From: Tateyamaria omphalii
Lineage (GTDB): Bacteria; Pseudomonadota; Alphaproteobacteria; Rhodobacterales; Rhodobacteraceae
Assembly: GCF_019802125.1 (NCBI RefSeq)
Contig: NZ_JAHVHT010000003.1
Location: 372,001 to 436,000, forward strand
Direction: 5' to 3'
DNA: 64,000 nt
How positions within the stretch are numbered: position 1 is the first letter of the stretch; each line of letters starts with the position of its first letter. Below, one piece after another: positions 46,148-64,000 of the stretch. The translations under genes were made by a program, and so were the position numbers. The notes beneath the pieces were generated by a model that was not told the origin of the DNA, did not search any database, and worked only from the letters and a program-made list of their open reading frames with translations.

Positions 46148-47119
46148 CTAGGTGGAATGAGCGCGCGCGATCAGGTCCACGCCCATCTGATGAAACAGGT
46201 CCATGTAATCGAGCATGACCCAGTTCTCCGCAATCTGACCTGCCTCGCACCGATAGAAATCCATCACCCGCAGCGTAAGGTTTTTGCCGGTCGGTTCCAT
46301 GCCCAGGTAAGGGCCGCGATGCGTCATCGTCATCGACGGCCAGCCCGAGATCGCGGCGTAGTTGCCTTGCCCGATCCGCGCGTAGTGATTGCCCCCCTTG
46401 CGGTCCGGAAAGGCGGCGAGGAACGGTGCGCGGTGATCTTTCACAAACCCTGCCCAGCGGTGGTTTGACCCGATGCCGCCGGGCCCGTACCACAGCATGT
46501 CATCGGCCCAGTATCCGCCCTCTCCGGTCTGTCCCTTGGAGGTGCCGGTCTCGGGGTCGTAGACATGCAGATCGCCCAGCATCGCCTCGATCAGATCAAG
46601 GCTGGCTTCGCCGTCACCCGCAGGCAGGATGCCATCATGGGTCGCTGGCCCCGGAAACAGCATCTCTGTGCCCAAGAGCCCGCCGAAAGGATCGCGCCCG
46701 GCCTGCCGCATCAGGTCCGGCAGGTCGAGGATGATCCGCGCCTCGATGATCCGGCCATTCTCGACCTGGTAGAATTCGCCCGACCGCAGAAAGGCCAGCC
46801 GATTCGACGGCACGATGTTCCACAAAGGGGCCGCAAAGGTGCCCACATAGTGCGTGAACGTCGCGATCCATGTCCCGCCAACCTCCCGCCGGTTCGCGCC
46901 CGTGATGAAAATTTCATCGCGGCGCCGGCCATGCGGCAGTGCAGCACGCAATGGTCCATAAACCTCGGTCCAGGCATCGCCTGGCACATTCGCGGGATGC
47001 GAGAAATAAAAGGCGCAATCGCGTGCAAAGCAGGTTTCAAAAGCGCGCCGCGCTGCAGCATCATCATCTGCCCAAAGCGCATGCAAGGCTGCCCTCAATG
47101 CAGGAATATCGGAGGTCAT
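46148..47119 (-). CDS. Tandem NTF2/SnoaL-like protein 1
   Basis: A 323-residue protein built of two NTF2-like (SnoaL/ester-cyclase type) alpha+beta cone domains, about 1-150 and 170-323. The second has MLWYGPGGIGSNHRWAGFV, DRKGGNHYARIGQGNYAAI, and the end IAENWVMLDYMDLFHQMG; the proteins at 53904 and 54905 share these blocks. NTF2-like folds host small-molecule cyclases, isomerases, hydrolases and binding proteins, so no reaction is assigned. It is divergent from the transporter operon and shares the palindromic operator at 47139-47158; GGAGG precedes ATG 47119. Confidence 0.75.
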   Translation of the reverse strand: MTSDIPALRAALHALWADDDAAARRAFETCFARDCAFYFSHPANVPGDAWTEVYGPLRAALPHGRRRDEIFITGANRREVGGTWIATFTHYVGTFAAPLWNIVPSNRLAFLRSGEFYQVENGRIIEARIILDLPDLMRQAGRDPFGGLLGTEMLFPGPATHDGILPAGDGEASLDLIEAMLGDLHVYDPETGTSKGQTGEGGYWADDMLWYGPGGIGSNHRWAGFVKDHRAPFLAAFPDRKGGNHYARIGQGNYAAISGWPSMTMTHRGPYLGMEPTGKNLTLRVMDFYRCEAGQIAENWVMLDYMDLFHQMGVDLIARAHST

Positions 47120-47138
47120 TCTGGCTGTCCCGAGATCG

Positions 47139-47158
47139 TTTTGCACACGTGTGCAAAA
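47139..47158. promoter_or_regulatory. Perfect 20-bp LacI-type operator of the accessory locus
   Basis: TTTTGCACACGTGTGCAAAA is a perfect palindrome with central CG. It lies 19 bases before the start of the divergent NTF2-like gene and 65 bases before the transporter ATPase gene, so one bound dimer could repress both directions. The LacI-family gene at 56709-57728 in the same locus is the natural candidate to bind it. I saw no second copy in the window. Confidence 0.7.
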
Positions 47159-47223
47159 AACAGTTGCCAAGTCAAAGCCCGGATGTCTAGCCTATTTCAT
47201 CAACCTATGGGTCGGGGGTCCGG

Positions 47224-48270
47224 ATGGCAGAGATTCAACTGCGCAACATCAACAAGCGGTGGGGTACGTTCGTTGGCGTCGACAATTTCGACCTGACCAT
47301 CGCGGATGAGGAATTCCTGGTGCTGCTTGGTCCCTCGGGCTGCGGCAAGACCACGACGATGCGCATGATCGCGGGGCTGGAGGATGCGACCGAAGGCGAC
47401 ATCATGATCGACGGCAAACGGGTCAATGATCTGGACCCCAAGGACCGCGATGTGGCCATGGTGTTCCAGTCCTACGGCCTTTACCCGCACTTGAACGTCT
47501 ACGAAAACATCCGCTTCCCGCTGAAGGTCCGCAAGGTGGACCCAGCCACCCATGACGAGCGCGTGCGTCGTGCCAGCGCCATGGTGGAACTGGACGATTT
47601 CTTGCATCGCAAGCCTGCCGAACTGTCAGGCGGTCAGCGTCAGCGTGTGGCCCTTGCCCGTGCTATTGTCCGCGAACCCAACGTGTTCCTGATGGACGAG
47701 CCGCTGTCGAACCTCGACGCCAAGCTGCGCGTCTCGACCCGTGCGCAGATCAAGAACTTGAGCCACGAGTTGAAGGTCACAACGGTTTACGTGACCCACG
47801 ACCAGATCGAGGCGATGACACTCGCCGACCGCGTCGTCGTGATGAAACAGGGCAAGGTCCAACAGGTTGGAACGCCAACAGAAATCTACGACCGGCCTGC
47901 CAATACCTTTGTCGCCAGCTTTATCGGTTCACCGGCGATGAACCTGATGGATGGCACCATGTCCGGCGGCACCTTCACCGGCGACAGCGTGTCGATCAGC
48001 GGCCTGACGGCACCCGATGGACCCGCCACGCTAGGCTTCCGGGCCGAAGACGCCGCCTTGGCCGATGCGGACGGCCAGATCACGGCGCCCATCTACACCA
48101 TCGAGCTTCTGGGCGACGCCACCATGCTCACCGTCCGCGCCGGCGGGCAACTGGTGTCGATCAAGGCACACAAGGAATTCCGGGCCGAGATCGGCGACAG
48201 CGTCTCCTTCTCGGTCCCTGCGGGCATCTGCCACGCATTCGATTCCTCTTCCGGCGAACGTCTCGCCTGA
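47224..48270 (+). CDS. ABC transporter ATP-binding protein (UgpC/MalK type)
   Basis: A 348-residue ATPase of the carbohydrate-uptake CUT1 family. Walker A GPSGCGKTT at 36-44, Q-loop VFQSYGLYPHL about 80-90, signature LSGGQ at 134-138, Walker B VFLMDEP at 154-160, switch His in YVTHDQIEAMT, then a C-terminal regulatory OB-type domain (about 235-348) as in MalK/UgpC. It powers the two permeases encoded downstream from the cytoplasmic face. First gene after the LacI-type operator. Confidence 0.93.
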   Translation: MAEIQLRNINKRWGTFVGVDNFDLTIADEEFLVLLGPSGCGKTTTMRMIAGLEDATEGDIMIDGKRVNDLDPKDRDVAMVFQSYGLYPHLNVYENIRFPLKVRKVDPATHDERVRRASAMVELDDFLHRKPAELSGGQRQRVALARAIVREPNVFLMDEPLSNLDAKLRVSTRAQIKNLSHELKVTTVYVTHDQIEAMTLADRVVVMKQGKVQQVGTPTEIYDRPANTFVASFIGSPAMNLMDGTMSGGTFTGDSVSISGLTAPDGPATLGFRAEDAALADADGQITAPIYTIELLGDATMLTVRAGGQLVSIKAHKEFRAEIGDSVSFSVPAGICHAFDSSSGERLA

Positions 48271-48310
48271 GGAAACCGGCCGCACGGGGATACCCGTGGG
48301 CCCAACACCG

Positions 48311-48339
48311 GCCAGTGCAGGCTTGCAAGATGCACTGGC
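48311..48339. promoter_or_regulatory. Intercistronic hairpin before the binding-protein gene
   Basis: GCCAGTGCA (48311-48319) pairs perfectly with TGCACTGGC (48331-48339) around an 11-base loop; a smaller stem CACGGG-GATA-CCCGTG is at 48283-48298. Such hairpins between ATPase and binding-protein genes commonly protect or process the mRNA so that the binding protein is made in excess. Confidence 0.5.
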
Positions 48340-48364
48340 GCAAAACGCAACAGGGAGTTTGCAC

Positions 48365-49585
48365 ATGTATCTGAAAAAACTGGCACTCGCGGGCGCCGTC
48401 TCGCTTTTGGGCAGCACGGCATTTGCCGCGTGTTCCTACGAAAACGAGGTGCCACTGAAGTCGCTGACCGCGGGCTTTGAAGCATGGAAGGCCGTCACCG
48501 ACGCCATGGCTGAGTGCGGTAATTTCCAGGCCGAGTTGGACCAGGAGTTCCGCACCAAGCAGCCCGCCGCGTTCGAGGCGAACCCGTCGCTCTACCAGAT
48601 CGGTGGTGTGTCGAACGGTACTATCACACCGCTGCTGAACGCAGGCACGATCCGTCCGCTGGATGATCTCGTTGAAAAATACGGCCAGAACCTGTCGCCC
48701 AACCAGCTGATCCGGGTGGATGGCAAGATCATGGCCGTCGCCATGATGGTGAACACGCAGCACCTGATGTACCGCAGCGACATTCTGGCCGATCTGGGCA
48801 TTGAGACCCCCACCACATGGGACGAAGTCTTTGCCGCCGCCGAGAAGATCGAAGAGGCTGGCGTCGTCGACCACGCCATCGGTGCGACCATGAAGTCCGG
48901 CTGGAACCTCGCCCAGGAATTCGTGAACATGTATCCCGGCTTCGGCGGCGCATTCTTTAATGCCGACAACACCACTGCCGTGAATTCCGAAGCAGGGATG
49001 AAAGCGCTCGACACCATGAAGCGGACGCTGGACTTCACCGACCCGGAAGTTCTGGTCAGCGACTCCACTTACGTGCAGCAGCAGTTCCAGCAGGGCAAGA
49101 TCGCCATGGCGAACCTGTGGGCCAGCCGCGCGGGCGCGATGAACGACGAAAGCGAGAGCACTGTCGTGGGCAAGGTTTCGATGGCCGCAGCCCCCATGGC
49201 GATGGACGGTGGTGCACCGGCCACCACGCTCTGGTGGGACGGTATCGTGATTGCGGCAAACATCACGGACGAAGAAGCGGATGCCGCCTTCCGTCTGGCG
49301 ATGGAAGGTCTGGATACCGAGATGGTGCAGGGCGCGAACGAGGCAGCGATCTGGCTGGTCAATGGCTATGCGCCAGGCCCGCTGGCCGAAGGTGCGATTG
49401 CAACCGCAACCGCCAATCCGGCACCGCCTGCATACCCGTCGACCACGCAGATGGGTCTGCTGCACACAGCCCTCGGCAATGAACTGCCCGCCTTCCTGAC
49501 AGGCGAGCGTGGTGCAGAGGCGACGCTGGTCGCGGTGACCGAAGCCTACACCACAGCCGCCAAAGAAGCTGGCGTGTTGGAATAA
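48365..49585 (+). CDS. ABC transporter substrate-binding protein (sugar/polyol type)
   Basis: A 406-residue periplasmic binding protein of the CUT1 cluster. Signal peptide YLKKLALAGAVSLLGSTAFA with cleavage near 21-22; later LYQIGGVSNGTITPLLNAGTIRPLDDLVEKYG and AVAMMVNTQHLMYRSDILADLGIETPTTWDEVFAAAEKI are typical of extracellular solute-binding family 1. Ligand not predictable; the class mostly binds sugars, polyols or glycerol-phosphate-like compounds. GGGAG lies eight bases before ATG 48365. Flanked on both sides by stable hairpins, consistent with high expression. Confidence 0.9.
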   Translation: MYLKKLALAGAVSLLGSTAFAACSYENEVPLKSLTAGFEAWKAVTDAMAECGNFQAELDQEFRTKQPAAFEANPSLYQIGGVSNGTITPLLNAGTIRPLDDLVEKYGQNLSPNQLIRVDGKIMAVAMMVNTQHLMYRSDILADLGIETPTTWDEVFAAAEKIEEAGVVDHAIGATMKSGWNLAQEFVNMYPGFGGAFFNADNTTAVNSEAGMKALDTMKRTLDFTDPEVLVSDSTYVQQQFQQGKIAMANLWASRAGAMNDESESTVVGKVSMAAAPMAMDGGAPATTLWWDGIVIAANITDEEADAAFRLAMEGLDTEMVQGANEAAIWLVNGYAPGPLAEGAIATATANPAPPAYPSTTQMGLLHTALGNELPAFLTGERGAEATLVAVTEAYTTAAKEAGVLE

Positions 49586-49592
49586 AACGACT

Positions 49593-49619
49593 GGCTGGCC
49601 GGGGACTTCTCGGCCAGCC
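49593..49619. promoter_or_regulatory. Hairpin after the binding-protein gene
   Basis: GGCTGGCCG (49593-49601) pairs with CGGCCAGCC (49611-49619) around a nine-base loop, eight bases after the binding-protein stop and 18 before the GMC remnant start. No T-run follows, so it is likelier an mRNA stabiliser or partial attenuator (as between malE and malF) than a full terminator. Confidence 0.55.
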
Positions 49620-49637
49620 GTTCACTCTGGGGGACAG

Positions 49638-49784
49638 ATGAAACGCGAGTGCGATCATATCGTTGTGGGCGGTGGCTCTGCTGGATGCGTGGTGGCTGCG
49701 CGTCTTGCCGAACGACCGGGCGCACTCTTTGACTACCTGGCTGCCATATCGCTGCGACCCTGCAATTTGAGGACCAACGCATGA
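49638..49784 (+). pseudogene. N-terminal stub of a GMC oxidoreductase
   Basis: A 48-codon frame starting ATG 49638 with GGGGGA just upstream. Its first 28 residues include HIVVGGGSAGCVVAARLAE, the FAD-binding beta-alpha-beta opening of GMC flavoenzymes (choline dehydrogenase/glucose oxidase family, normally about 530-560 residues). After the sequence RPG the similarity stops abruptly and about 20 unrelated residues follow; the TGA (49782-49784) overlaps the ATG of the permease gene. The catalytic remainder is gone, so no enzyme is made, but the stub keeps a ribosome site and could couple translation into the permease. Confidence 0.7.
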
Positions 49785-50809
49785 AGTTCAAAACCTTTTT
49801 CTGGTTCGTGGCCCCCTCGGTCTTCATGATGCTGCTCTTTATCGCGGCACCGCTCATCTCGGTCTTCATCCAGTCCTTCCAGATCACCCAGCCGGTCATG
49901 CAACAGATCGAGGTCGAGACCTGCACCCCAGGCTTCCTGACCCAGACCTGTGTCACGGAAACCAAAACGGTTCCGGTGATCAATGAAGAGACCGGGCGCA
50001 CGGAAACCACCACGGCGTGGGTGGGCTTTCGCAGCTACCAGAACGTGTTGCAGATGGATAAATTCTGGTCCGCCATCGGGTCCGGCAACTGGGGTGAGAT
50101 CCTGCAGATCGACTTCTGGAAGGCGCTGCGCTTCACGCTGATGTTCACGCTGGTGACACTGCCTTTGGTCATCGGTGTGGGTCTGATGATCGCGCTGGCC
50201 GTGAACAACGCCGCCAAGTCCTTGCGCGGCCCTGTCATCTTTGTCTCGCTTTTGCCCTTCATCATCACGCCCGTGATTGGGTCGCTATCAATCTACTGGC
50301 TCTTCGTGGGCGACGGCATCCTGACGGCCACGCTGGAACGCTGGACGGGCCAGGACATCGCCATGTTCGCGCAGGCCTGGACCATTGAGCTTCTGATGTA
50401 TTTCTACCGCGTCTGGCACGTCGCCCCCTTCGCCTTCGTCATCTTCTACGCGGGCCTCCAGACCGTGAACATGGACACGCTGGAAAGCGCGATCATCGAC
50501 GGCGCCAGCCGCTTTGAACGTTTGCGCTACGTGATCGTACCGCACCTGATGCCACTGATCATCTTCATCGCTTTGATCCACCTGATGGATTGCTACCGCG
50601 TCTTTGACGAGATCATCGGCTTCCGCAGCCAGGCGCATGTCATCTCGCTACAATGGCTGACCTTCGACTTCCTCACACCGGATGACGCGGGCAACCGGGC
50701 GATCAGTCGTGCCGCGGCGTCGGCGATGCTGACCATGGTGGGCATCGTGATCCTGCTGATCCTGCCGCTGCGCCGCACCTGGCGCGACCACAAAGGGGGG
50801 ACACATTAA
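49781..50809 (+). CDS. ABC transporter permease 1 (MalF/UgpA type)
   Basis: A 342-residue inner-membrane permease. First span FFWFVAPSVFMMLLFIAAPLI, then a long periplasmic insertion (about 35-90) with two Cys (ETCTPGFLTQTC) that may be disulfide-bonded, then five more spans. The EAA loop contacting the ATPase is SAIIDGASRFERLRYVIVPHLMPLI (conserved Gly). Overlaps the GMC stub stop by four bases and the next permease start by one. Confidence 0.9.
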   Translation: MKFKTFFWFVAPSVFMMLLFIAAPLISVFIQSFQITQPVMQQIEVETCTPGFLTQTCVTETKTVPVINEETGRTETTTAWVGFRSYQNVLQMDKFWSAIGSGNWGEILQIDFWKALRFTLMFTLVTLPLVIGVGLMIALAVNNAAKSLRGPVIFVSLLPFIITPVIGSLSIYWLFVGDGILTATLERWTGQDIAMFAQAWTIELLMYFYRVWHVAPFAFVIFYAGLQTVNMDTLESAIIDGASRFERLRYVIVPHLMPLIIFIALIHLMDCYRVFDEIIGFRSQAHVISLQWLTFDFLTPDDAGNRAISRAAASAMLTMVGIVILLILPLRRTWRDHKGGTH

Positions 50810-51960
50810 TGTCCAAAGCCACCGCACAGCCGCTGTCGCTCAAGCTTGCATCGGGCGCGTTTCTCGCCTTCTGGTGCCTGATCGCGGCCTTCCCAATCGC
50901 CTGGATCGCGGTGATGAGCGTGAAGTCCCCGCGCGACGCCTTTGATGCGAGCGCTTGGAACGTGATCACTGGTCCAGCCACGCGGGCCGCTGGCAACGGC
51001 CTCAGCTTCCTCGACATCCTGCTGGGGCTGATCGTGCTCTACTTCGCGATCCGCTGGGCCTTTACGAAGCTGCCGAGGTTGGTCGAGCAATTCTCGCCCC
51101 CCGGCTTCATCGTGTTGGGCTGGCTTGTTGGTGCCGCTGTCTACGGTCTGCTATTCGTGCTGATCTTTTTCGGCGCATTACCGGTCATCTTCGGCGCACT
51201 CAACAGCATCGCTGGGCCGCTGGGCACACCGATCCTCGGCCTGACGACGGAACATTACGTGGCGGTCTGGGGCGAAAACCAGTTCTACCGCAACTTCATC
51301 AACTCGATGATCGTGACGGCAGGCGTGGTGACTGTCTCGCTCACGGTCGGCACGCTCGCGGGCTACGGCCTTGCGCGCTCCGGCTCGAACCTCGCCTTCT
51401 GGCTCCTGATCATTGCGCTTGTCTTCCGCGCCCTGCCGCACTCGGTGCTGGTGGCAGGCTACCTGCCTTGGTTCATTAACTCGGCCGAAATCCTGCGCCC
51501 GATCCTCGGGGACCTCAGCCCCACGCTCTACGGCCAGCCCTGGGCGATCATCGCGGTGCTTGTGGCGATCAACCAACCCTTTACCATCTGGATGCTGCGG
51601 TCATTCTTTCAGAACATCCCTAGCGAACTCGACGAAGCTGCACGGGTCGACGGCTGCAGTCACTTTCAGGCCTTCCGCCGCGTGATCATGCCGGTCATGT
51701 GGCCCGGGGTAATCACCACGGGGCTCTTCAGCTTCCTTCTGGGATATAACGACTTCCTGGTCACGGCTCTGCTGCTCGACGCGCAAAACCAGACCATGGT
51801 CCCGGCCATCGCGGGCTACTTCAACCGCGAAACCACCACCACGGATCAGGTCGAGGCGGTGGCAGCCGCGGTCTCCATCACGGCGCCTCTGTTCCTGCTC
51901 GTCATGGTCTTCCAACGCCAGATCGTGTCGGGCCTGACTGCGGGTGCGGTGAAGGGATGA
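50809..51960 (+). CDS. ABC transporter permease 2 (MalG/UgpE type)
   Basis: A 383-residue permease, longer than typical MalG (about 280) because of an insertion of about 90 residues after the first span that adds two more hydrophobic stretches (LDILLGLIVLYFAIRWAF and VLGWLVGAAVYGLLFVLIFF). The core begins around YRNFINSMIVTAGVVTVSLTVG, and the EAA loop is ELDEAARVDGCSHFQAFRRVIMPVMWPG. It should pair with permease 1 to form the membrane channel. Confidence 0.9.
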   Translation: MSKATAQPLSLKLASGAFLAFWCLIAAFPIAWIAVMSVKSPRDAFDASAWNVITGPATRAAGNGLSFLDILLGLIVLYFAIRWAFTKLPRLVEQFSPPGFIVLGWLVGAAVYGLLFVLIFFGALPVIFGALNSIAGPLGTPILGLTTEHYVAVWGENQFYRNFINSMIVTAGVVTVSLTVGTLAGYGLARSGSNLAFWLLIIALVFRALPHSVLVAGYLPWFINSAEILRPILGDLSPTLYGQPWAIIAVLVAINQPFTIWMLRSFFQNIPSELDEAARVDGCSHFQAFRRVIMPVMWPGVITTGLFSFLLGYNDFLVTALLLDAQNQTMVPAIAGYFNRETTTTDQVEAVAAAVSITAPLFLLVMVFQRQIVSGLTAGAVKG

Positions 51961-51970
51961 GACGCTCTTC

Positions 51971-51986
51971 AAGCCCATCTGGGCTT
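51971..51986. promoter_or_regulatory. Small hairpin between permease 2 and the next gene
   Basis: AAGCCCA-TC-TGGGCTT (7-bp stem, 2-base loop) lies 11 bases after the permease stop. It has no proper T-run; it may be a weak attenuator between transport and catabolic genes, or an mRNA 3' protective element. Confidence 0.4.
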
Positions 51987-52031
51987 TCATCGCTGGCCCA
52001 AACGAAGACAGCCCAAAGGGGTGGATGAGAG

Positions 52032-52562
52032 ATGAAAGGTTCCCGACCGGAACAGGCGGTTCTGACCCGCGATACGGACATGTCCAAAACGGATGACACC
52101 CGCGCTGTGATCGAAGGGATGGTGGATGGTCTGAACGACCACCGCATTGACGACATCGGCCAGTTCTTTGCCGAAAGTTTCCGCTGGATGGGCAACACCG
52201 GCTGCGGTGCCAAGACTGGGCTGCAGGAGTTTCAGGACAACTGGCAGCGCCCGTTTCAGGCCGCTTTTGCCGACAAGGTCTGTGTCGACGAGGCACGGCT
52301 TTATATGGGGGAATGGGCCGCCGCCTTTGGCCGGCAGGAGGCCACACATGCCGGTGAGTTCATGGGGATTGCCCCCACCGGCAAGCGGATCGAGATCCGG
52401 TACATGGATTTCTGGAAAGTCGAAGATGGCCGCATCACCGACAACTACGTGATGGTCGATTTTCCCCACGTCCTCGCCCAGCTGGGGCGGGACGTTTTTG
52501 ATGGTGAGGGCTGGGAAGCCTTCGATCGCGGCGACAAGACCCCGCCGCGCCCCGATGTATGA
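52032..52562 (+). CDS. Single-domain NTF2/SnoaL-like protein 2
   Basis: A 176-residue (or 160 from ATG 52080) NTF2-like domain of the SnoaL/ester-cyclase group: IEGMVDGLNDHRIDDIGQFF, then SFRWMGNTGCGAKTGLQEFQ, HAGEFMGIAPTGKRIEIRYMDFWKVEDGRITDNYVMVD. The G-I-x-P-T-G-K-R/x-I-E-I-x-x-x-D-F-W segment is shared with the two-domain paralogues in this locus. Such domains include lactone- or ring-forming and hydrolytic enzymes; no reaction is assigned. It lies ten bases before the HisD-family gene. Confidence 0.8.
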   Translation: MKGSRPEQAVLTRDTDMSKTDDTRAVIEGMVDGLNDHRIDDIGQFFAESFRWMGNTGCGAKTGLQEFQDNWQRPFQAAFADKVCVDEARLYMGEWAAAFGRQEATHAGEFMGIAPTGKRIEIRYMDFWKVEDGRITDNYVMVDFPHVLAQLGRDVFDGEGWEAFDRGDKTPPRPDV

Positions 52563-52571
52563 GGTGAGGAC

Positions 52572-53900: not shown

Positions 53901-53903
53901 GCC

Positions 53904-57728: not shown

Positions 57729-58693
57729 AGGGTTTTTCGAACCGGTGGAAGGATTTCCCCGACTATATCATCGGCATCACCAAGGAGATCTGGGAAGACC
57801 GCGGCATCGCGACCCTGCATCACTATTACAGCCCGGACATCGTGGTGCGCTCGCCCGGTTCGGTGGTGATTGGGAGTGAGAAGGTCATTGGCGCGACCAT
57901 GGCGACGCTCGCCGAGTTTCCGGACCGGACGCTGCTGGGCGAGGATGTGATCTGGTCGGGGACGCCGGAGGAGGGGATGCTGTCGTCGCACCGCATCCTG
58001 TCGACGGCGACGCATATGGCGGATGGGGTCTATGGCAAGGCATCTGGCAAGACGCTGCAATACCGCATCATTGCGGACTGTCATGCGATTAACGATCAGA
58101 TCAACGACGAGTGGTTGATCCGCGACCAGACGGCCATCGTGAATCAGATCGGGTGGGAGGCGAAGGCTTACGCTGCGGACCTGATCGAGCGTGAGGGTGG
58201 GATGGAGAAGGCGGTGCGTCCGTTGTCTCCAGCGACCGACCAGCCGGGACCCTACAAGGGGCGGGGCAATGATAGTGAGTGGGGTGCGAAGTACGCCGAC
58301 ATCCTGACTCGGATCATGGGTGCCGATATGGCCGTGATCCCGGGCGAATATGACCGGGCGGTACAGTCGGAGTATCCCGGCGGGCTGACCGGGCATGGCA
58401 CGGGGCCGGTGGACCGGTTCTGGATGGGGCTGCGGGCGTCGTTCCCCGATGCAGAGTTCACCATCGACCACCAGATCGGGCGTGACGATGAGATGATGCC
58501 GCCCCGGGCTGCGATCCGCTGGAGCCTGCATGGCAAGCACGACGGCTGGGGGTATTTTGGCGCGCCGACGGGGGCGGAAGTTTATGTGCTGGGGATTTCC
58601 CATGCCGAGTTCGGGCCATGGGGGCTGCGCCGGGAATATGCTCTGTTTGACGAGACGGCGATCTGGAAGCAGATCCTGTTGCAGACGGGCTGA
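57725..58693 (+). CDS. Tandem NTF2/SnoaL-like protein 5 (divergent)
   Basis: A 322-residue protein with two NTF2-like halves: about 1-135 (TKEIWEDRGIATLHHYYSPDIVVRSPGSVVIGSEKV) and 160-322 (YDRAVQSEYPGGLTGHGTGP, VDRFWMGLRASFPDAEFTIDHQ, GAEVYVLGISHAEFGPWGLRREYALFDE). It lacks the WYGPGGIG block of the other copies and is the most distant paralogue. Its ATG overlaps the LacI stop (ATGA). Confidence 0.7.
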   Translation: MKGFSNRWKDFPDYIIGITKEIWEDRGIATLHHYYSPDIVVRSPGSVVIGSEKVIGATMATLAEFPDRTLLGEDVIWSGTPEEGMLSSHRILSTATHMADGVYGKASGKTLQYRIIADCHAINDQINDEWLIRDQTAIVNQIGWEAKAYAADLIEREGGMEKAVRPLSPATDQPGPYKGRGNDSEWGAKYADILTRIMGADMAVIPGEYDRAVQSEYPGGLTGHGTGPVDRFWMGLRASFPDAEFTIDHQIGRDDEMMPPRAAIRWSLHGKHDGWGYFGAPTGAEVYVLGISHAEFGPWGLRREYALFDETAIWKQILLQTG

Positions 58694-58735
58694 AGTCGCA
58701 TTTGCATATTTAGAGAACAATGAAAGGTCAGGGCT

Positions 58736-59350
58736 GTGCGCCGCTATGACGAGGTGATGTTCACGGAGGCCGTGAAGGCGCTGCAGGAGGCGGATGGGTC
58801 TGCCGAGATGTACGCCCGCGGCTATGGTGCGCGGATCCATGCGCTGAACGCGGATGAGGTCGCTTTTATTGCCTCACGCACATCGTTTTACATGGCGACC
58901 GTTTCCGAGACGGGCTGGCCCTATATCCAGCATCGCGGCGGGCCGGCGGGCTTTCTGAAGGTGCTGGATGATCACACGCTGGGTTTTGCGGACTATCGTG
59001 GCAACAAGCAGCACATTTCCGAAGGCAATCTGGCGGGCGATGACCGGGTGTCGCTGTTCCTGATGGACTACCCGCGCAAAGCGCGGATGAAGCTGCAGGG
59101 GCGTGCCACCTTTGCCAAGGCCGAGGATGCGCCAGAGCTTGCAGAGCGGCTGGCTGTCGAGGGGCAGGGCCGGGTCGAGCGAGTGGTGACCATCAACGTG
59201 GAAGCCTTTGACTGGAACTGTCCGCAGTTCATCACGCCGCGCTTTGATGCCTCTGAGATCGCGCAATTGGTGGCGCCGGAAATGGACAAGCTGCAGGCGC
59301 GGATTGCCGAGTTGGAAGCGGAGAATGCAGTGCTGAAGGGGCAGGGATGA
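58736..59350 (+). CDS. Pyridoxamine 5'-phosphate oxidase-like (split-barrel flavin) protein
   Basis: A 204-residue protein with a split-barrel FMN-binding fold: VAFIASRTSFYMATVSETGWPYIQHRGGP and TLGFADYRGNKQHISEGNLAGDDRVSLFLMDYPRKARMKLQG are the usual blocks of PNPOx-like proteins, and the last 35 residues form a coiled coil (MDKLQARIAELEAENAVLKG). It probably binds FMN, F420 or heme, and may act as a reductase. Start is GTG 58736; ATG 58757, preceded by GAGG, is the alternative. Confidence 0.8.
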   Translation: MRRYDEVMFTEAVKALQEADGSAEMYARGYGARIHALNADEVAFIASRTSFYMATVSETGWPYIQHRGGPAGFLKVLDDHTLGFADYRGNKQHISEGNLAGDDRVSLFLMDYPRKARMKLQGRATFAKAEDAPELAERLAVEGQGRVERVVTINVEAFDWNCPQFITPRFDASEIAQLVAPEMDKLQARIAELEAENAVLKGQG

Positions 59351-59883
59351 TTGACATTTACCGTGCTGCCGAACGTCTGATGGGTATGCAGGACGCTGAT
59401 TGGCGGCGGCACGCAAGCCCGTGGAGCTTTTGGACGAGGTTTTCTTGCCTGCCGTTGATCGCGCTGGCGATCTATGCGCGGCAGTGGATCGGTTGGTGGG
59501 CGTTGCCGTTGTTCCTGCTGGCCGCAGTGTGGACGTGGGTGAACCCCCGAGCCTTTCCGCCGCCGCGCGACTTTGGCAGCTGGGCGTCGCGCGGTACGTT
59601 GGGCGAGCGCATCTTTCTGTCGCGGGATCGCTATGACATTGCCCCACATCACATCCGGGTCGGGCACGTGCTGACGACCCTCTCCGCCCTTGTCGTGTTG
59701 CCACTGTTCTATGGCCTGATTGTGCTGAACCCTTGGGCGACGCTCCTCGGGCTGGTCGCAACCATCCTGCCGAAGGTTTGGTTCGTGGACCGCATGGTCT
59801 GGATCCACGCCGACATCACCAATACCACACCGGGCGATCCGTTGCCCGATCCAACCCTCCCACATGAAAGGACCCCCACATGA
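59347..59883 (+). CDS. DUF6653-like small membrane protein
   Basis: A 178-residue protein with two to four hydrophobic segments: FSCLPLIALAIYARQWIGWWALPLFLLAAVWTW (about 31-64) and VLTTLSALVVLPLFYGLIVL (about 106-125) with LLGLVATILPKVWFVDRM. The opening IYRAAERLMGMQDADWRRHASPWSFWTRF matches a conserved family of unknown function (as I recall, DUF6653). Overlaps both neighbours by four bases. Possible inner-membrane partner of the neighbouring enzymes. Confidence 0.7.
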   Translation: MIDIYRAAERLMGMQDADWRRHASPWSFWTRFSCLPLIALAIYARQWIGWWALPLFLLAAVWTWVNPRAFPPPRDFGSWASRGTLGERIFLSRDRYDIAPHHIRVGHVLTTLSALVVLPLFYGLIVLNPWATLLGLVATILPKVWFVDRMVWIHADITNTTPGDPLPDPTLPHERTPT

Positions 59884-60845
59884 CCCCCGCCGAGATGGAG
59901 CCGCGCATTGTGCGTTATGGCGATCTGATGCCTTGCAAGACCGCGTTTATCGACGCGCATACGCCGGGTTCGGACCAGAAGGAGAACTTTACCATCATCG
60001 GTGGCGGGGTGTCGGAAAGCCCGGATCAGCATGTGCATATCTCGATCCCGCATGGCTTCAATATCGGGGCCGCCGGGCAGCCGCCGAAGTGCCGGAACTC
60101 GCTGCATTCGCACCGCACGGCTGAGGTGTTCTTTGTCCTGTCGGGGCGTTGGCGGTTTTTCTGGGGGCGCTGGGGGAAGGCGGGTGAGGTCGTGCTGGAA
60201 GAGGGCGACATCATTAACATTCCGACCGGTATCTTTCGGGGGTTCGAGAATATCGGCACCGATTACGGGATGATCATGGCGATCCTTGGCGGTGACGATG
60301 CGGGCGGTGGCGTCATCTGGGCCCCGCAAGTGATCGAGGAGGCGGGCGCGCATGGCCTGGTGCTTGGCGAGAATGGCAGCCTTTATGACAGCAAGAAGGG
60401 GCAGAGCCTGCCCGATGGTGTGGGGCCGATGCCGTTGCTGAGCGCGGAGGAGTTGACGGAGTTCCCCGAGATGTCGCCGATGCAGGTCGTTGGCATGGGC
60501 GTGCGCCGGTATTGGGACATGGTGTGTCTGGCCAAGGACGCGCCCTGCAAGGTGATCGGCGAGAGCGGGATTATTCGCGACAAGCCGGGCTTTGAAGTGG
60601 ATCTGGTGACGCGCAGCAGCGCGTCGGATGACATGCACACGCATGACAAGCCGTCGGTTCTTATGCCTGTGAAAGGGCACTGGAAGGTGACGTGGGACGG
60701 CGGCAGCACCACGCTGGCACCGGGCGACACGATGAGCGTGCCGGAGAACATGCCGCACAGTGCCGTGCCGTCGATGACGGGGGAGGCTGCGCTCTATCAC
60801 GTGGTGGGCACGGATGATCCGGCGGGGCCGACGTGGACAGGGTGA
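59880..60845 (+). CDS. Bicupin protein
   Basis: A 321-residue protein with two cupin barrels. Cupin 1 has NSLHSHRTAEVFFVLSGRW and EGDIINIPTGIFRGFENIG (His, His, Glu and a late aromatic in place of the second-motif His). Cupin 2 has SDDMHTHDKPSVLMPVKGHW and PGDTMSVPENMPHSAVPS with a His in the second motif. Bicupins of this general design include gentisate 1,2-dioxygenase and sugar isomerases, but neither is clearly indicated. A metal-dependent ring-opening, isomerase or lyase step is conceivable. Confidence 0.8.
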   Translation: MTPAEMEPRIVRYGDLMPCKTAFIDAHTPGSDQKENFTIIGGGVSESPDQHVHISIPHGFNIGAAGQPPKCRNSLHSHRTAEVFFVLSGRWRFFWGRWGKAGEVVLEEGDIINIPTGIFRGFENIGTDYGMIMAILGGDDAGGGVIWAPQVIEEAGAHGLVLGENGSLYDSKKGQSLPDGVGPMPLLSAEELTEFPEMSPMQVVGMGVRRYWDMVCLAKDAPCKVIGESGIIRDKPGFEVDLVTRSSASDDMHTHDKPSVLMPVKGHWKVTWDGGSTTLAPGDTMSVPENMPHSAVPSMTGEAALYHVVGTDDPAGPTWTG

Positions 60846-61444
60846 GCGCTGATCCGGAGGACATTCAGGGCGTCTATGACCGGCAGGCGGCGGTCTATGA
60901 TGCCCGCCGGTCGCGTGCCTTGTTCGAGGCGCGATGGTTGGCACGGTTTGCTGCCGCCTTGCCCCAAGGCGCGCGCGTGCTGGATCTGGGCTGCGGTACG
61001 GGCGATCCGATTGCGCGATGGTTCATGGCCGAAGGGTTCGGCGTGACCGGTGTCGATTTTTCGGAACCGATGCTCGCGATTGCGCGGGAGCGGTGGCCAG
61101 ATGGGGACTGGCGGCGGGCCGACATGCGGGTGCTGGATTTGGGCGAGACCTTTGACGGCATCGTCGCCTGGAACAGCTTTTTCCACCTGACTGCAGAGGC
61201 GCAGCGGGACTGTATCGGGCGTATGTCTGCACATCTGGAACCGAGTGGCAGCTTGATGCTGACCGTCGGGCCGAGCGCTGGCGAGGGGGAAGGCACGGTT
61301 GGCGATGAGCAGGTCTATCACGCCTCGCTCTCACCTGCGGAATATGCCAAATGTCTTGAGGACAACGGCCTGCGCCTGACCGGCTTTCTCGCCGAAGACC
61401 CGGACGCCAATCAGCATACCGTGCTGATGGCGCGCAAAGACTGA
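60842..61444 (+). CDS. Class I SAM-dependent methyltransferase
   Basis: A 200-residue Rossmann methyltransferase. GVYDRQAAVYDARRS precedes the SAM loop ARVLDLGCGTGDPIARWF, followed by FGVTGVDFSEPMLAIARERW and the catalytic-region WNSFFHLTAEAQR. GTG 60842 overlaps the bicupin stop as GTGA, like the other couplings in this locus; GTG 60833 is possible. Acceptor unknown; next to the MetE-like gene it may be part of methyl-group handling. Confidence 0.82.
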   Translation: MSADPEDIQGVYDRQAAVYDARRSRALFEARWLARFAAALPQGARVLDLGCGTGDPIARWFMAEGFGVTGVDFSEPMLAIARERWPDGDWRRADMRVLDLGETFDGIVAWNSFFHLTAEAQRDCIGRMSAHLEPSGSLMLTVGPSAGEGEGTVGDEQVYHASLSPAEYAKCLEDNGLRLTGFLAEDPDANQHTVLMARKD

Positions 61445-61455
61445 AGGAGATTGCC

Positions 61456-62580
61456 ATGTCTGTCACAACCACCCATGTGGGGTCCTTGCCCCGGACGCAG
61501 AAGGTTGTCGATTTCATCTTTGCCCGCGAGCGGGAGGAGCCGTTTGAGCAGGCTGATTTCGATGCAGCGATGGCGGAGGCGGTGGACGAGACGGTTGCGA
61601 AGCAGGTGGCCGCCGGGGTGGACATTGTAAGCGATGGCGAGACGTCGAAGATCAGCTATGCGACTTATGTGAAGGATCGCTATACCGGCTTTTCCGGCGA
61701 CAGCCCGCGGAATGCACCTGCGGATTTGAAGCAGTTTCCAAGTTTTCTCAAGCGGTTGGCCGAGGGTGGTGGCACGCCGCAATATGCGCGCCCTATGTGC
61801 ACCGGTGAGGTGAAGAGCAAGGGGCAGGGCGAGTTGGAGAAGGACATCGCGAACCTCAAGGCGGCGATGAAGAAGCATGGGGTTGAGCGTGGGTTTATGA
61901 ATGCGGCCTCGCCCGGCGTGATTTCTCTGTTCCTGCAGAACGATTTCTATCCGACGCGCGATGCGTATCTGGCGGCCCTCGCCGATGCGATGAAGGCGGA
62001 GTATGAGACCATCGTGGGCGCGGGGTTGGATTTGCAGCTGGACTGCCCGGACTTGGCCCTGTCGCGGCATATGCTGTTCAATGATCTGAGCGATGCGGAA
62101 TTTCTGAAGATTGCGGATGCGCATGTGGAGGCGTTGAACCATGCGCTGGCGGATGTCCCTGCAGAGAAGGTGCGCGTGCATATTTGCTGGGGCAACTACG
62201 AGGGGCCGCATGTCTGTGATGTACCCATGGACACGGTCTTTCCAACGTTGATGGCGACCAAGGCGCGCTATGTGTTATTCGAGACGTCGAACCCGCGCCA
62301 TGCCCATGAGTGGACGGTGTTTCGGGACAGAAAGTCGGAGATCCCGGAGGACAAGGTGCTGGTGCCGGGTGTGGTCGATACAACGACCAACTTTGTCGAG
62401 CATCCGGAGGTGGTGCGGCAGCGGATCGAGCGGTTTACGGATATTGTCGGGGCGGATCGAGTGATTGCGGGGAGCGATTGCGGGTTTGGCACCTTTGCAG
62501 GTTTTGGCTCGGTTGATCCGGAGATCGCCTATGCCAAGTTGAATGCCTTGTCCGAAGGGGCGGCGATGGTGAAGGGCTGA
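61456..62580 (+). CDS. MetE-like, single-domain cobalamin-independent methyltransferase
   Basis: A 374-residue TIM-barrel protein matching only the C-terminal catalytic half of methionine synthase MetE (full enzyme about 750). Opening TTHVGSLPRTQ. The zinc site is complete: H242 and C244 (VHICWGNYEG), E276 (LFETSNPRH) and C342 (GSDCGFGTFAG). Such short proteins transfer methyl or alkyl groups from small donors to thiols (core MetE, epoxyalkane:CoM transferase-like, demethylases). Without the N-terminal domain it need not make methionine. AAGGAG precedes ATG 61456. In this catabolic locus a role in removing a methyl group from the substrate is plausible. Confidence 0.88.
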   Translation: MSVTTTHVGSLPRTQKVVDFIFAREREEPFEQADFDAAMAEAVDETVAKQVAAGVDIVSDGETSKISYATYVKDRYTGFSGDSPRNAPADLKQFPSFLKRLAEGGGTPQYARPMCTGEVKSKGQGELEKDIANLKAAMKKHGVERGFMNAASPGVISLFLQNDFYPTRDAYLAALADAMKAEYETIVGAGLDLQLDCPDLALSRHMLFNDLSDAEFLKIADAHVEALNHALADVPAEKVRVHICWGNYEGPHVCDVPMDTVFPTLMATKARYVLFETSNPRHAHEWTVFRDRKSEIPEDKVLVPGVVDTTTNFVEHPEVVRQRIERFTDIVGADRVIAGSDCGFGTFAGFGSVDPEIAYAKLNALSEGAAMVKG

Positions 62581-62583
62581 GCG

Positions 62584-63276
62584 ATGGATGACGCGCTTCA
62601 TGATCTGCTGAAGTCGGTCGATACGCCCACGGTCTGCAACGCCATCGAGGTGGCGCAGGGCAAGCGTGGGTTCAATGCCTTCACCCGTGGCACGATGCTG
62701 GCGTCGGACCCGGACGGTGTGATGGTGGGCTACGCTCGCACTGCGCGCATTCGAGCGCTCGCGCCGCCGACGGAAGCGCCAGGTGTGATCAAGGCGCGGC
62801 GCATGGCGTACTACAAATACATGTCCGAGGGCGCGAGACCGTCGGTCTGTGTGGTTCAGGATCTGGATGTGCCGAACGCTATTGGGGCGTATTGGGGCGA
62901 GGTGAACACCAATATTCACAAGGCTTTTGGTCTGGCTGGAACGCTCACCGACGGTGTGATGCGCGACCTTGGTGATCTGGCCGACGGCTATCCGGTTGTC
63001 GCAGGCTCCATCGGGCCGAGCCATGGGTTTGTGCATGTGGTGGATTATGACCAGCCGGTGCGTATCCACGGGCTGGACATTCGGCCCGGTGATCTGGTGC
63101 ATGCCGACCGGCATGGGGCGGTGGTCATCCCGGAGGATGTGGTGACCGGGCTGGCACATGCCATCGCAACGCTGATGCGGTCGGAGAAGATCGTGTTCGA
63201 TGCGGTGAAGGGCAAGCGGATCGGCTTTAAGGAGTTCGAAGCGGTCTGGGCCGCGTTCGAGGCGGCGCGGACGTGA
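62584..63276 (+). CDS. RraA / HMG aldolase-family protein
   Basis: A 230-residue protein of the RraA-like superfamily (4-hydroxy-4-methyl-2-oxoglutarate aldolase, oxaloacetate decarboxylase, regulator of RNase E). VDTPTVCNAIEVAQG at the start, and AYWGEVNTNIHKAFGLAGTLTDGVMRDLGDL with the metal-binding G-x(n)-R-D segment, then VHADRHGAVVIPEDV. In a catabolic locus an aldolase or decarboxylase yielding a 2-oxoacid is the likely role. It overlaps the CIA30-domain gene by four bases. Confidence 0.88.
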   Translation: MDDALHDLLKSVDTPTVCNAIEVAQGKRGFNAFTRGTMLASDPDGVMVGYARTARIRALAPPTEAPGVIKARRMAYYKYMSEGARPSVCVVQDLDVPNAIGAYWGEVNTNIHKAFGLAGTLTDGVMRDLGDLADGYPVVAGSIGPSHGFVHVVDYDQPVRIHGLDIRPGDLVHADRHGAVVIPEDVVTGLAHAIATLMRSEKIVFDAVKGKRIGFKEFEAVWAAFEAART

Positions 63277-63797
63277 TCCGCTGGGCAATCGCCTTTGCCC
63301 TGCTATGTTCGCCGGTTATGGCAGATGATCTGGTTCTGACCCCCGACTGGGAATACGTGGCCGACACCGTGATGGGGGGCGTGTCGTCTGGGCAGGCGGT
63401 TATCGAAGTCGTCGAGGGGCGCGAGGCTGTTCGGCTGACCGGGGCCGTTTCGCTGGAGAACAATGGCGGCTTTGTTCAGATCGCCTTTGATCTGGCGGGC
63501 GGTGGTGCGTTCGACGCGAGTGGCTATGCGGGTGTCGCGCTGGATGTGCTGGGCAATGGTGAGAGCTATGACCTGCGTTTGCGCACCGATGCGCTGACGC
63601 GGCCATGGCAATCCTTCAGGTCCGAGTTTGTTGCAAACGAGGCGTGGACGACGATCCGAATCCCCTTCACCGCATTTGAGGCGCATCGCACCGACGCGTC
63701 GTTCGACCCGAGCAGGCTGCGCCGCATCGGCATCCTTGCCATCGGGCGCGAGATGCAGGCGGATATTGCCGTGTCAGGCGTACGGTTCTACCGCTAG
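63273..63797 (+). CDS. CIA30 (NDUFAF1-like) domain protein, exported
   Basis: A 174-residue protein with an N-terminal signal (IRWAIAFALLCSPVMADD) and a CIA30 beta-sandwich: WEYVADTVMGGVSSGQAVIE is the hallmark opening, followed by FVQIAFDLAGGGAFDASGYAGVALDVLGNGESY and IGILAIGREMQADIAVSGVRFY at the end. The fold resembles carbohydrate-binding modules and occurs in bacterial proteins of unknown role. Start is GTG 63273. Its stop shares CTAG with the convergent enolase-superfamily gene. Confidence 0.82.
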   Translation: MIRWAIAFALLCSPVMADDLVLTPDWEYVADTVMGGVSSGQAVIEVVEGREAVRLTGAVSLENNGGFVQIAFDLAGGGAFDASGYAGVALDVLGNGESYDLRLRTDALTRPWQSFRSEFVANEAWTTIRIPFTAFEAHRTDASFDPSRLRRIGILAIGREMQADIAVSGVRFYR

Positions 63798-64000
63798 TCG
63801 CGCGGGGCGGGGGCGCCACCTTCGAAGTTGTTGCCGCGTTCGTAGTCGCACGGGGCTTCCTGCATCTGCAGATGGAGTCCGTCGCCCGTATAGGGGTGCG
63901 CGCGGGCCAGATCTTCGTCTACGTCGATGCCGAGACCGGGGGCTTCGGGCGGTGTGATGAAGCCGCGCTCGACCCGGATGCTGCCCTTGATCAGCTGGTC
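63794..64000 (-). CDS. Enolase-superfamily dehydratase, C-terminal end only
   Basis: The last 68 residues of a protein whose body lies beyond the right edge. The tail PPEAPGLGIDVDEDLARAHP is the usual end of mandelate racemase/muconate lactonising enzyme-type dehydratases (sugar-acid dehydratases), where a GPGLGV-(E/D) segment closes the capping domain. The active site is not in view, so the substrate is unknown. Sugar-acid dehydration would fit the neighbouring RraA-like and dehydrogenase genes. Confidence 0.6.
   Translation of the reverse strand, partial: DQLIKGSIRVERGFITPPEAPGLGIDVDEDLARAHPYTGDGLHLQMQEAPCDYERGNNFEGGAPAPRD

What the first reader, a model, noticed from the sequence alone, without database searches (positions are those of the whole stretch)
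46148..64000. Uncharacterised catabolic locus with five NTF2/SnoaL-like proteins and a stand-alone MetE-like methyltransferase
One LacI-controlled, tightly overlapping gene set joins a CUT1 ABC importer to a HisD-family dehydrogenase, an SDR, a bicupin, an RraA-family protein, an enolase-superfamily enzyme, two methyltransferases and five NTF2-like proteins (46148, 52032, 53904, 54905, 57725). I know of no named pathway with this combination. Families suggest uptake of a hydroxylated, perhaps methylated, small molecule, demethylation, oxidation to acids, and dehydration/aldol cleavage to central metabolites; that order is inference. The five paralogues of one fold in one locus are the oddest part.
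Basis: partly seen in the sequence, partly recalled or inferred. Interest (0 to 1): 0.78.

Follow-up and report, generated by a model that had tools for sequence, protein, structure and literature searches.

The report
Conserved marine catabolic regulon, substrate unknown
A block of about 18 genes, common in ocean bacteria and switched by one repressor, very probably imports and breaks down an unidentified small molecule and may hand the molecule's methyl group to homocysteine; no paper found here explains it, so it points to a nutrient route nobody has named.

Summary
In detail: five SnoaL/NTF2-like proteins (four of tandem size), a CUT1 importer, HisD-like and SDR dehydrogenases, bicupin, RraA, LacI, a SAM methyltransferase and a MetE-like protein without folate domain lie together in a Tateyamaria-like genome. 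It is a conserved divergon: in the 80 best related loci 60 hold all 13 core genes in the same order. I found the probable LacI operator (TTGCAnnCGnnTGCAA, 47141-47156). In five genomes with a split locus, separate pieces (cupin; MetE+hydrolase; HisD; transporter) each carry it, so they look like one regulon. In 149 family genomes the MetE-like gene occurs in 51, 50 of them with this HisD type; it keeps the zinc and homocysteine residues of E. coli MetE. The HisD resembles the sulfonate enzyme HpsN but lacks its sulfonate-binding histidine (Met in 113 of 113), and the genome has a separate probable HpsN. The Phaeobacter 'mes-like' gene, deleted in a published study, is placed here by the study's primers. 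Best reading: uptake, homocysteine-dependent demethylation, two oxidations and aldol cleavage of a hydroxylated, methylated compound. Its identity and what the SnoaL proteins do remain unknown.

The parts
46148..47119 (-). SnoaL_A, tandem SnoaL/NTF2-like protein, divergent from the operon (longer ORF to 47170)
   Evidence: Pfam SnoaL 79.7 bits; a SnoaL_A-type hit in 60 of 80 related loci, 30 of them at 50% identity or more
47141..47156 (.). Probable LacI operator TTGCACACGTGTGCAA in the divergent promoter region
   Evidence: pattern in 74 of 80 related loci L089-L168; one other site in the genome, with a different core, beside genes that look inositol-related by eye
47224..48270 (+). CUT1 importer ATPase (UgpC/MalK type)
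   Evidence: NCBIfam PRK11650 450 bits, over its cut-off 432
48365..49585 (+). CUT1 solute-binding protein
   Evidence: Pfam SBP_bac_1 82.7 bits; distant to solved sugar and sulfoquinovosyl-glycerol binders
49592..49620 (+). hairpin after the binding-protein gene
   Evidence: RNA fold -30.8 kcal/mol for 49580-49650, z -4.35, 0 of 200 shuffles as good
49638..49730 (+). remnant (about 31 codons) of a GMC oxidoreductase that is intact-sized at this place in some relatives
   Evidence: 84% identity over 31 residues to the L089 protein
49781..50809 (+). CUT1 permease F
   Evidence: Pfam BPD_transp_1
50809..51960 (+). CUT1 permease G
   Evidence: Pfam BPD_transp_1
52032..52562 (+). SnoaL_B, single-domain SnoaL-like protein
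   Evidence: Pfam SnoaL 66.8 bits; position of SnoaL Asp121 is Val
52572..53900 (+). HisD-family (HpsN-like) dehydrogenase
   Evidence: Closest solved structure DHPS-3-dehydrogenase, 400 bits; catalytic motifs kept, His126 of HpsN is Met
53904..54908 (+). SnoaL_C, tandem SnoaL-like protein (lineage-specific)
   Evidence: Pfam; in 10 of 80 loci
54905..55954 (+). SnoaL_D, tandem SnoaL-like protein
   Evidence: Pfam SnoaL 93.7 bits; AlphaFold model pLDDT 87.6, two NTF2-like domains
55951..56709 (+). SDR dehydrogenase
   Evidence: Pfam adh_short_C2 182.9 bits; 75 of 80 loci
56694..57728 (+). LacI-family regulator, probable repressor of the regulon
   Evidence: Pfam LacI + Peripla_BP_3; 77 of 80 loci
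57716..58693 (+). SnoaL_E, divergent tandem SnoaL-like protein; the SnoaL type also found with the HisD core outside the class
58736..59350 (+). PNPOx-type flavoprotein (accessory)
   Evidence: Pfam PNPOx_N; 20 of 80 loci
59347..59883 (+). DUF6653 protein (accessory)
   Evidence: Pfam; 13 of 80 loci
59880..60845 (+). bicupin, conserved metal-ligand residues in the N-terminal barrel
   Evidence: Pfam Cupin_2; H76, H78, E82 invariant in 27 sequences; fold neighbours quercetinase, salicylate dioxygenase, oxalate decarboxylase
60833..61444 (+). SAM-dependent methyltransferase (accessory)
   Evidence: Pfam Methyltransf_25; 35 of 80 loci
61456..62580 (+). MetE-like protein without folate domain; predicted homocysteine methyltransferase
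   Evidence: Pfam Meth_synt_2 58.2 bits; Zn and homocysteine residues conserved; 73 of 80 loci
62584..63276 (+). RraA-family protein, predicted 4-hydroxy-2-oxoacid aldolase or oxaloacetate-type decarboxylase
   Evidence: Pfam RraA-like 66.3 bits; 65 of 80 loci; an HpcH/HpaI aldolase stands in this role in Klebsiella and Pantoea
63273..63797 (+). CIA30-domain protein (accessory, possibly unrelated)
   Evidence: Pfam; 17 of 80 loci
63794..64000 (-). end of an enolase-superfamily sugar-acid-dehydratase-like gene that runs beyond the window
   Evidence: L010:3794-5026; 25 of 80 loci

Best explanation
A single-substrate catabolic regulon. Shown by sequence: one LacI-type operator sits before the importer and, in split genomes, before separate enzyme genes of the same set. 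Inferred: the CUT1 importer brings in a hydroxylated, methyl-bearing small molecule, which relieves LacI. The MetE-like enzyme moves a methyl group from it (or from an intermediate) to homocysteine, making methionine without folate. The HisD-like enzyme oxidises a CH(OH)-CH2OH end by four electrons to a hydroxy acid and the SDR makes the keto acid. The hydrolase (in many relatives, not in the window), bicupin and SnoaL-like proteins rearrange, open or eliminate. The RraA-type enzyme (HpcH/HpaI type in Klebsiella and Pantoea) then cleaves a 2-oxo acid to pyruvate plus a fragment. The locus looks modular: the HisD-SDR-hydrolase-aldolase-cupin core occurs alone (Klebsiella), importer plus SnoaL genes occur without it (Vibrio pelagius plasmid), and SnoaL plus MetE occur without it (Halobellus).
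For: Content and order conserved: 60 of the 80 best loci hold all 13 core genes in the same order, and in all 80 the core genes found on the locus strand are in that order. Operator at the divergent promoter, and in five genomes with a split locus at two or more separate places: cupin alone plus the main locus (G001), MetE+hydrolase plus the main locus (G126), SnoaL_A/B pair, HisD and transporter (G140), HisD and transporter (G105, G098). In 149 family genomes SnoaL_D 50, MetE 51, HisD type 66; MetE with HisD 50 (Fisher 3e-24); both within 12 kb in 42 of 50. MetE-like: H242, C244, E276, C342 and S10, E62, D196 match Zn and homocysteine residues of E. coli MetE and are invariant in 20 sequences including an archaeal one. 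P. inhibens mutants in other methionine genes do not grow well without methionine although the genome has a core-MetE homologue: bmt mutant only residual growth (PMC12366255), mtgCDE mutant an auxotroph (PMC12478193) (passages). HisD with catalytic motifs, closest to a diol oxidase. A class II pyruvate aldolase candidate (RraA or HpcH/HpaI type) in 65 of 80 loci (RraA) and in five more HisD loci read.
Against: No substrate, enzyme activity or expression was tested. The MetE-like gene was not seen in the Klebsiella and Pantoea-type loci read and is missing in 7 of 80 loci, four of which are cut short by a contig end, so demethylation is not needed by every version. The SnoaL proteins have no assigned reaction, and the position of SnoaL's catalytic Asp121 is Val. 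The bicupin lacks the fourth usual metal ligand (Arg at position 120). HisD of this broad type also sits in many other contexts, several without aldolase or SDR, so it alone says little about the substrate. Several operator-like sites in relatives lie away from the locus and were not explained (one before a TRAP transporter in G099; others not examined).
Confidence: 0.5

Rival explanations
1. It is a DHPS (dihydroxypropanesulfonate) or other sulfonate pathway with an HpsN-type dehydrogenase.
For: Closest solved relatives of the HisD protein are DHPS-3-dehydrogenases, 400 bits.
Against: The sulfonate-contacting His126 (PMC11382572, passages) is Met in 113 of 113 locus homologues. The genome has another protein with that His, 55% identical to CpHpsN, beside ORFs that look by eye like a Zn-alcohol dehydrogenase and a TPP-decarboxylase subunit. 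No sulfonate lyase among the window genes.
Confidence: 0.03
2. The MetE-like protein is an ordinary core methionine synthase that happens to sit here; the rest degrades an unmethylated compound.
For: All zinc and homocysteine residues kept. Residual growth of the P. inhibens bmt mutant without methionine was suggested to come from a second synthase (PMC12366255, passage).
Against: 50 of 51 genomes with it also have this HisD type, and 42 of 50 within 12 kb. In G126 it is unlinked yet carries the same operator. P. inhibens, which has a core-MetE homologue, is reported to be an auxotroph when mtgCDE is mutated (PMC12478193, passage).
Confidence: 0.15
3. Independent pathways were joined by chance or share only an inducer.
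For: Parts occur without each other: Halobellus has five SnoaL and MetE near an ABC importer of another type, without HisD; the Vibrio pelagius plasmid has the importer and SnoaL genes without HisD; Klebsiella has HisD, SDR, hydrolase, aldolase and cupin without them.
Against: Shared operator and fixed order in Alphaproteobacteria, including Roseibium; all 50 family genomes with SnoaL_D have HisD.
Confidence: 0.15
4. The SnoaL proteins are not enzymes but binding, carrier or buffering proteins; or the locus makes a polyketide-like product.
For: SnoaL's catalytic Asp position is Val; no reaction assigned; NTF2 folds often bind ligands (general knowledge).
Against: Invariant residues in A, C and D types such as W217, H236, R247, E309, W311, D315 suggest a working pocket. 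No polyketide synthase or other biosynthetic enzyme among the window genes; importer and aldolase-type protein point to catabolism.
Confidence: 0.12

Closest known systems
DHPS catabolism (HpsN/HpsO/HpsP) of Roseobacteraceae and Cupriavidus
   Same: HisD-family four-electron oxidation next to an SDR and a transporter; acid product
   Different: No His126 equivalent, no sulfonate lyase; adds MetE-like, cupin, aldolase-type and several SnoaL proteins
Core methionine synthases MesA-MesD (PMC7857596, passages read)
   Same: MetE catalytic domain without folate domain; zinc and homocysteine residues kept here
   Different: Tied to a LacI catabolic regulon; no MesX (DUF1852) among the window genes; methyl donor unknown; which Mes family is nearest was not tested beyond one MesD
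SnoaL / AclR / polyether epoxide hydrolase NTF2-like proteins
   Same: Fold and Pfam family; closest solved folds are tandem epoxide hydrolases (poor whole-chain superposition) and single SnoaL-like proteins
   Different: Position of SnoaL's Asp121 is Val; in a catabolic regulon rather than polyketide biosynthesis
LacI-CUT1 sugar or polyol oxidation operons ending in a pyruvate aldolase (rhamnose or fucose oxidation type; recalled)
   Same: LacI, CUT1 importer, SDR, lactonase-like hydrolases in many members, class II aldolase type
   Different: HisD instead of aldehyde dehydrogenase; sugar-acid dehydratase not core; MetE-like and SnoaL proteins extra

Membership tests
HpsN (DHPS 3-dehydrogenase) | HisD fold with catalytic Glu-His and zinc ligands | tested here: met
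   GQAEHG, SEH, GDK and C-terminal His motifs aligned with CpHpsN
HpsN (DHPS 3-dehydrogenase) | His126 that binds the sulfonate | tested here: not met
   Met in the window and in 113 of 113 locus homologues
Cobalamin-independent methionine synthase catalytic domain | Zinc ligands His, Cys, Glu, Cys | tested here: met
   H242, C244, E276, C342, invariant in 20 sequences; aligned to E. coli H641, C643, E665, C726 (the E. coli roles are recalled)
Cobalamin-independent methionine synthase catalytic domain | Homocysteine-binding Ser, Glu, Asp | tested here: met
   S10, E62, D196 aligned to E. coli S433, E484, D599 (roles recalled)
Full MetE (methyl-folate dependent) | N-terminal folate-binding domain | tested here: not met
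   374 aa; only Meth_synt_2 found
MesD | Adjacent MesX (DUF1852) | tested here: not met
   No DUF1852 among the window genes; the Vibrio pelagius protein next to DUF1852 aligns at 28% identity. Other loci not checked for DUF1852
SnoaL polyketide cyclase | SnoaL/NTF2 domain | tested here: met
   Pfam cut-offs passed; AlphaFold model of SnoaL_D
SnoaL polyketide cyclase | Catalytic Asp121 (recalled) | tested here: not met
   Val140 in SnoaL_B by alignment to 1sjw; Val312 in SnoaL_D by reading the same motif, not aligned by a tool
LacI-controlled regulon | Palindromic operator with central CG at the regulated promoters | tested here: met
   binding itself not testable here

The most novel reading that the evidence does not exclude
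About a third of the sampled genomes of this family carry an unrecognised demethylation pathway for a marine hydroxylated onium compound (for example the glycerol-betaine head group of betaine lipids, or a sulfonium or ammonium polyol). A folate- and cobalamin-free MetE-like enzyme passes its methyl group straight to homocysteine, and tandem NTF2 proteins form a new catabolic enzyme family that opens or isomerises the oxidised intermediate.
Probability: 0.25. Interest if true: 0.8.

Novelty: new variant of a known kind. Interest (0 to 1): 0.55.

Why it matters
The regulon is common in bacteria that recycle algal carbon, sulfur and nitrogen, and its substrate is unknown, so it marks a flux through a metabolite that marine budgets do not name. 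If the MetE-like step is a demethylation, it would be another direct link between osmolyte or lipid breakdown and methionine, beside DmdA and the betaine route, and it might use a methyl donor outside folate and B12. The operator, the importer's binding protein and an existing Phaeobacter deletion strain make the question testable now.

Tried and rejected
DHPS pathway: rejected on the missing His126 and the separate HpsN-like paralogue. Vibrio pelagius 'methionine synthase' near its SnoaL genes as support for a C1 link: rejected, it stands next to DUF1852 (MesD-type), beyond a transposase gene. DMSP link from neighbouring dmdA and SBP56 genes in Marinovum: noted, but among the 50 loci only one other has a DmdA-like neighbour (L065) and among the 80 none, and the P. 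inhibens mes-like mutant keeps the DMSP effect, so not used. Sarcosine-oxidase-type neighbours (Vibrio, Thalassospira, Roseomonas): too few and in differing contexts. Further operons in the own genome: none found with the exact pattern except one site of a different core. Operator-like sites away from the locus in relatives: one before a TAXI-type TRAP transporter in G099 (L172) is unexplained; single sites in G001, G075, G081, G082, G086, G089, G102 and G145 were seen in the (cut) listing and not examined. Substrate from the binding protein or LacI: uninformative. E. coli genomes: only short matches, hisD in the ten rows shown. Sigma-70 scan: at chance. Literature: ten searches found no paper that describes the locus; led to the mes-like paper. 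The library holds open-licence papers only. Betaine-lipid head group as substrate: no support found (listing only).

Some loci come from the same genome by two routes (for example L150 and L051). Fisher values ignore phylogeny. 
Full report
The window belongs to contig C3 (372001-436000) of a 4.49 Mb genome. Its SnoaL_D protein is 92% identical to that of Tateyamaria sp. ANG-S1, so the organism is a Tateyamaria-like roseobacter (inference).

Check of the observation. The five SnoaL proteins pass Pfam cut-offs; four are of tandem size. Four (A-D) are clear paralogues and E is very divergent. The gene at 46148 is divergent, not part of the same transcript. The enolase gene is mostly outside the window.

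Conservation. In these 80 loci I found by tblastn: SnoaL_D 80, importer genes 78, SnoaL_B 78, SnoaL_E 78, LacI 77, cupin 76, SDR 75, HisD 75, MetE 73, RraA 65, SnoaL_A type 60 (30 at 50% identity or more), an alpha/beta hydrolase (absent from the window) 46, SAM methyltransferase 35, enolase 25, PNPOx 20, amidohydrolase_2 18, CIA30 17, DUF6653 13, Zn-ADH 11, SnoaL_C 10. MetE and HisD hits are all at about 76% identity or more. Counting 13 core genes (importer four, SnoaL B/D/E, HisD, SDR, LacI, cupin, MetE, RraA), 60 of 80 loci hold all in the same order; in the rest the genes found on the locus strand keep the order (hits of 38% identity or less left out, and in L123 HisD and cupin lie on the other strand). 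Roseibium loci, outside Rhodobacterales (one search gives its taxonomy), hold the full set too. In some lineages the binding protein and permeases are of a second type, about 42% identical for the binding protein, while the enzymes stay.

Regulation. The region before the importer holds a palindrome, TTGCAnnCGnnTGCAA, with variable inner bases. It is present in 74 of the 80 loci, and in the own genome only here and once with a different core beside genes that look inositol-related by eye. In genomes where the locus is broken up the separate pieces carry it too: a lone cupin in G001, MetE plus hydrolase in G126, a SnoaL_A/SnoaL_B pair, HisD and the transporter in G140, and HisD and transporter pieces in G105 and G098. 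This is good comparative evidence that these genes form one LacI regulon. Against it: 33 of 34 genomes matched the pattern, but some (for example G035, G045 and G079) show only the other core in the listing, G020 none, and several sites away from the locus were not examined; one before a TRAP transporter in G099 is unexplained. The reversed control pattern gave no site in 33 of 34 genomes and one in G079.

Co-occurrence. In 149 genomes of the family, SnoaL_D relatives (E <= 1e-40) occur in 50, the MetE-like protein (E <= 1e-60) in 51 and this HisD type (E <= 1e-180) in 66; 50 of 51 MetE genomes have HisD, 45 have SnoaL_D, and all 50 SnoaL_D genomes have HisD; MetE and HisD lie within 12 kb in 42 of 50. 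Fisher values (3e-24 or smaller) ignore phylogeny.

MetE-like protein. It lacks the folate domain. Its profile aligns with the C-terminal part of E. coli MetE (hhalign probability 96, 22% identity). The four zinc ligands and the three homocysteine residues of E. coli (positions recalled, letters checked) are all kept and invariant in 20 homologues, including one from the archaeon Halobellus. So homocysteine is the likely acceptor; the donor is unknown. I infer that it is the pathway's substrate or an intermediate.

A link to published work. The 2025 paper on Phaeobacter inhibens (PMC12366255; abstract and passages read) deleted PGA1_c27430, 'mes-like', and found that DMSP still shortened the lag phase. 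The upstream knockout primer translates to AFIDAH, a motif of this bicupin, and its best place lies in the first part of the cupin gene in all 12 sequences I tested (1-5 mismatches). The outer downstream primer translates to IGAYWG of this RraA and falls at the same spot in 11 of 12 (1-4 mismatches there). The reverse verification primer (IAGSIG) falls at one spot of RraA in 7 of 12, and the forward verification primer fits no consistent place. Shuffled primers reach 4-5 mismatches somewhere, so the shared position, not the mismatch count, carries the argument. I conclude that mes-like is the orthologue inside this locus. PMC12478193 (passages) notes that P. inhibens is a methionine auxotroph when mtgCDE is mutated although it has a core-MetE homologue, presumably this one, which speaks against a housekeeping role.

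HisD-like protein. Best solved matches are DHPS-3-dehydrogenases (400 bits), then histidinol dehydrogenases. Catalytic motifs are kept, but the sulfonate-binding His126 (PMC11382572, passages) is Met in 113 of 113 locus homologues; in ten other relatives read it is Leu in seven, Met in two and Ile in one. The own genome has a different protein with the His. So it probably oxidises a CH(OH)-CH2OH group that is not a sulfonate. With a Pantoea-type query this broad type is found in 173 plasmid records at E <= 1e-100, 124 of them at 60% identity or more, in many settings.

Outside the Roseobacter-type locus. In Pantoea the HisD core comes with SDR, hydrolase, HpcH/HpaI aldolase, bicupin, LacI, a second HisD and two SnoaL proteins; in Klebsiella it has no SnoaL. 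The Vibrio pelagius plasmid has the CUT1 importer (56-64%) and SnoaL genes without HisD. Halobellus has five SnoaL genes and the MetE-like gene near an ABC importer whose binding protein and permeases did not match. HisD loci of Rhizobium, Caballeronia, Thalassospira and Roseomonas read here show no RraA or HpcH/HpaI gene. The stand-in of HpcH/HpaI for RraA suggests a class II pyruvate aldolase step (inference). The hydrolase resembles 3-oxoadipate enol-lactonase, far below its cut-off.

Cupin and SnoaL folds. The bicupin keeps H76, H78 and E82 but has an invariant Arg at the usual fourth ligand; fold neighbours are quercetinase, salicylate dioxygenase and oxalate decarboxylase (model pLDDT 79.7, residues 17-53 poor). 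SnoaL_D is modelled as two NTF2-like domains (pLDDT 87.6); by E-value the closest are tandem polyether epoxide hydrolases, with poor whole-chain superposition, then single SnoaL-like proteins with target TM-scores of about 0.6-0.8 over one domain. SnoaL_B has Val where SnoaL has its catalytic Asp121 (role recalled).

A lost gene. Between binding protein and permease, 8 of 115 loci carry an intact-sized GMC oxidoreductase, choline-dehydrogenase-like but below the model's cut-off; the window has only its first 31 codons.

Verdict. A conserved, probably coregulated and unnamed catabolic regulon: well supported. Homocysteine-dependent demethylation, diol oxidation and aldol cleavage: reasoned but untested. 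Substrate and SnoaL reactions: unknown.

Noticed in passing
window 49638-49730; intact-sized in L089, L091, L092, L094, L096, L097, L103, L050: Remnant of a GMC (choline-dehydrogenase-like) oxidoreductase between binding protein and permease; the gap is gene-sized in 8 of 115 loci, and stub-like translations are seen in L090, L093, L095, L101 and L104.
   Followed up: partly
G000:C1:1266779-1268041 (L206): A second HisD-family gene with the HpsN-type His, beside ORFs that look by eye like a Zn-alcohol dehydrogenase and a TPP-decarboxylase subunit: probably the true DHPS locus of this genome.
   Followed up: partly
L090:11047-11682 and nine other loci: A glutathione S-transferase-like gene inside the locus: between SnoaL_D and SDR in 7 loci (L090, L091, L093, L101, L104, L105, L145) and between HisD and SnoaL_D in 3 (L116, L147, L149); role unknown.
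   Followed up: partly
L043 (Halobellus limi plasmid, archaeon): Five SnoaL-like genes in a row plus the MetE-like gene near an ABC importer of another type, without HisD, SDR or cupin hits.
   Followed up: partly
L048 (Marinovum algicola pMaD9) and L046 (Phaeobacter piscinae): SBP56 (selenium-binding protein, methanethiol-oxidase family by recall) genes close to SnoaL/CUT1 loci; in Marinovum also dmdA and an acyl-CoA ligase.
   Followed up: no
L172:8191 (G099:C3:250190): An exact match to the operator pattern just before a TAXI-type TRAP transporter (named by eye); not explained.
   Followed up: no
L202 (Salmonella Milwaukee plasmid) and L196 (Klebsiella michiganensis plasmid): LacI plus HisD, and in Klebsiella the whole HisD core, lie on plasmids that PLSDB types as conjugative.
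   Followed up: no
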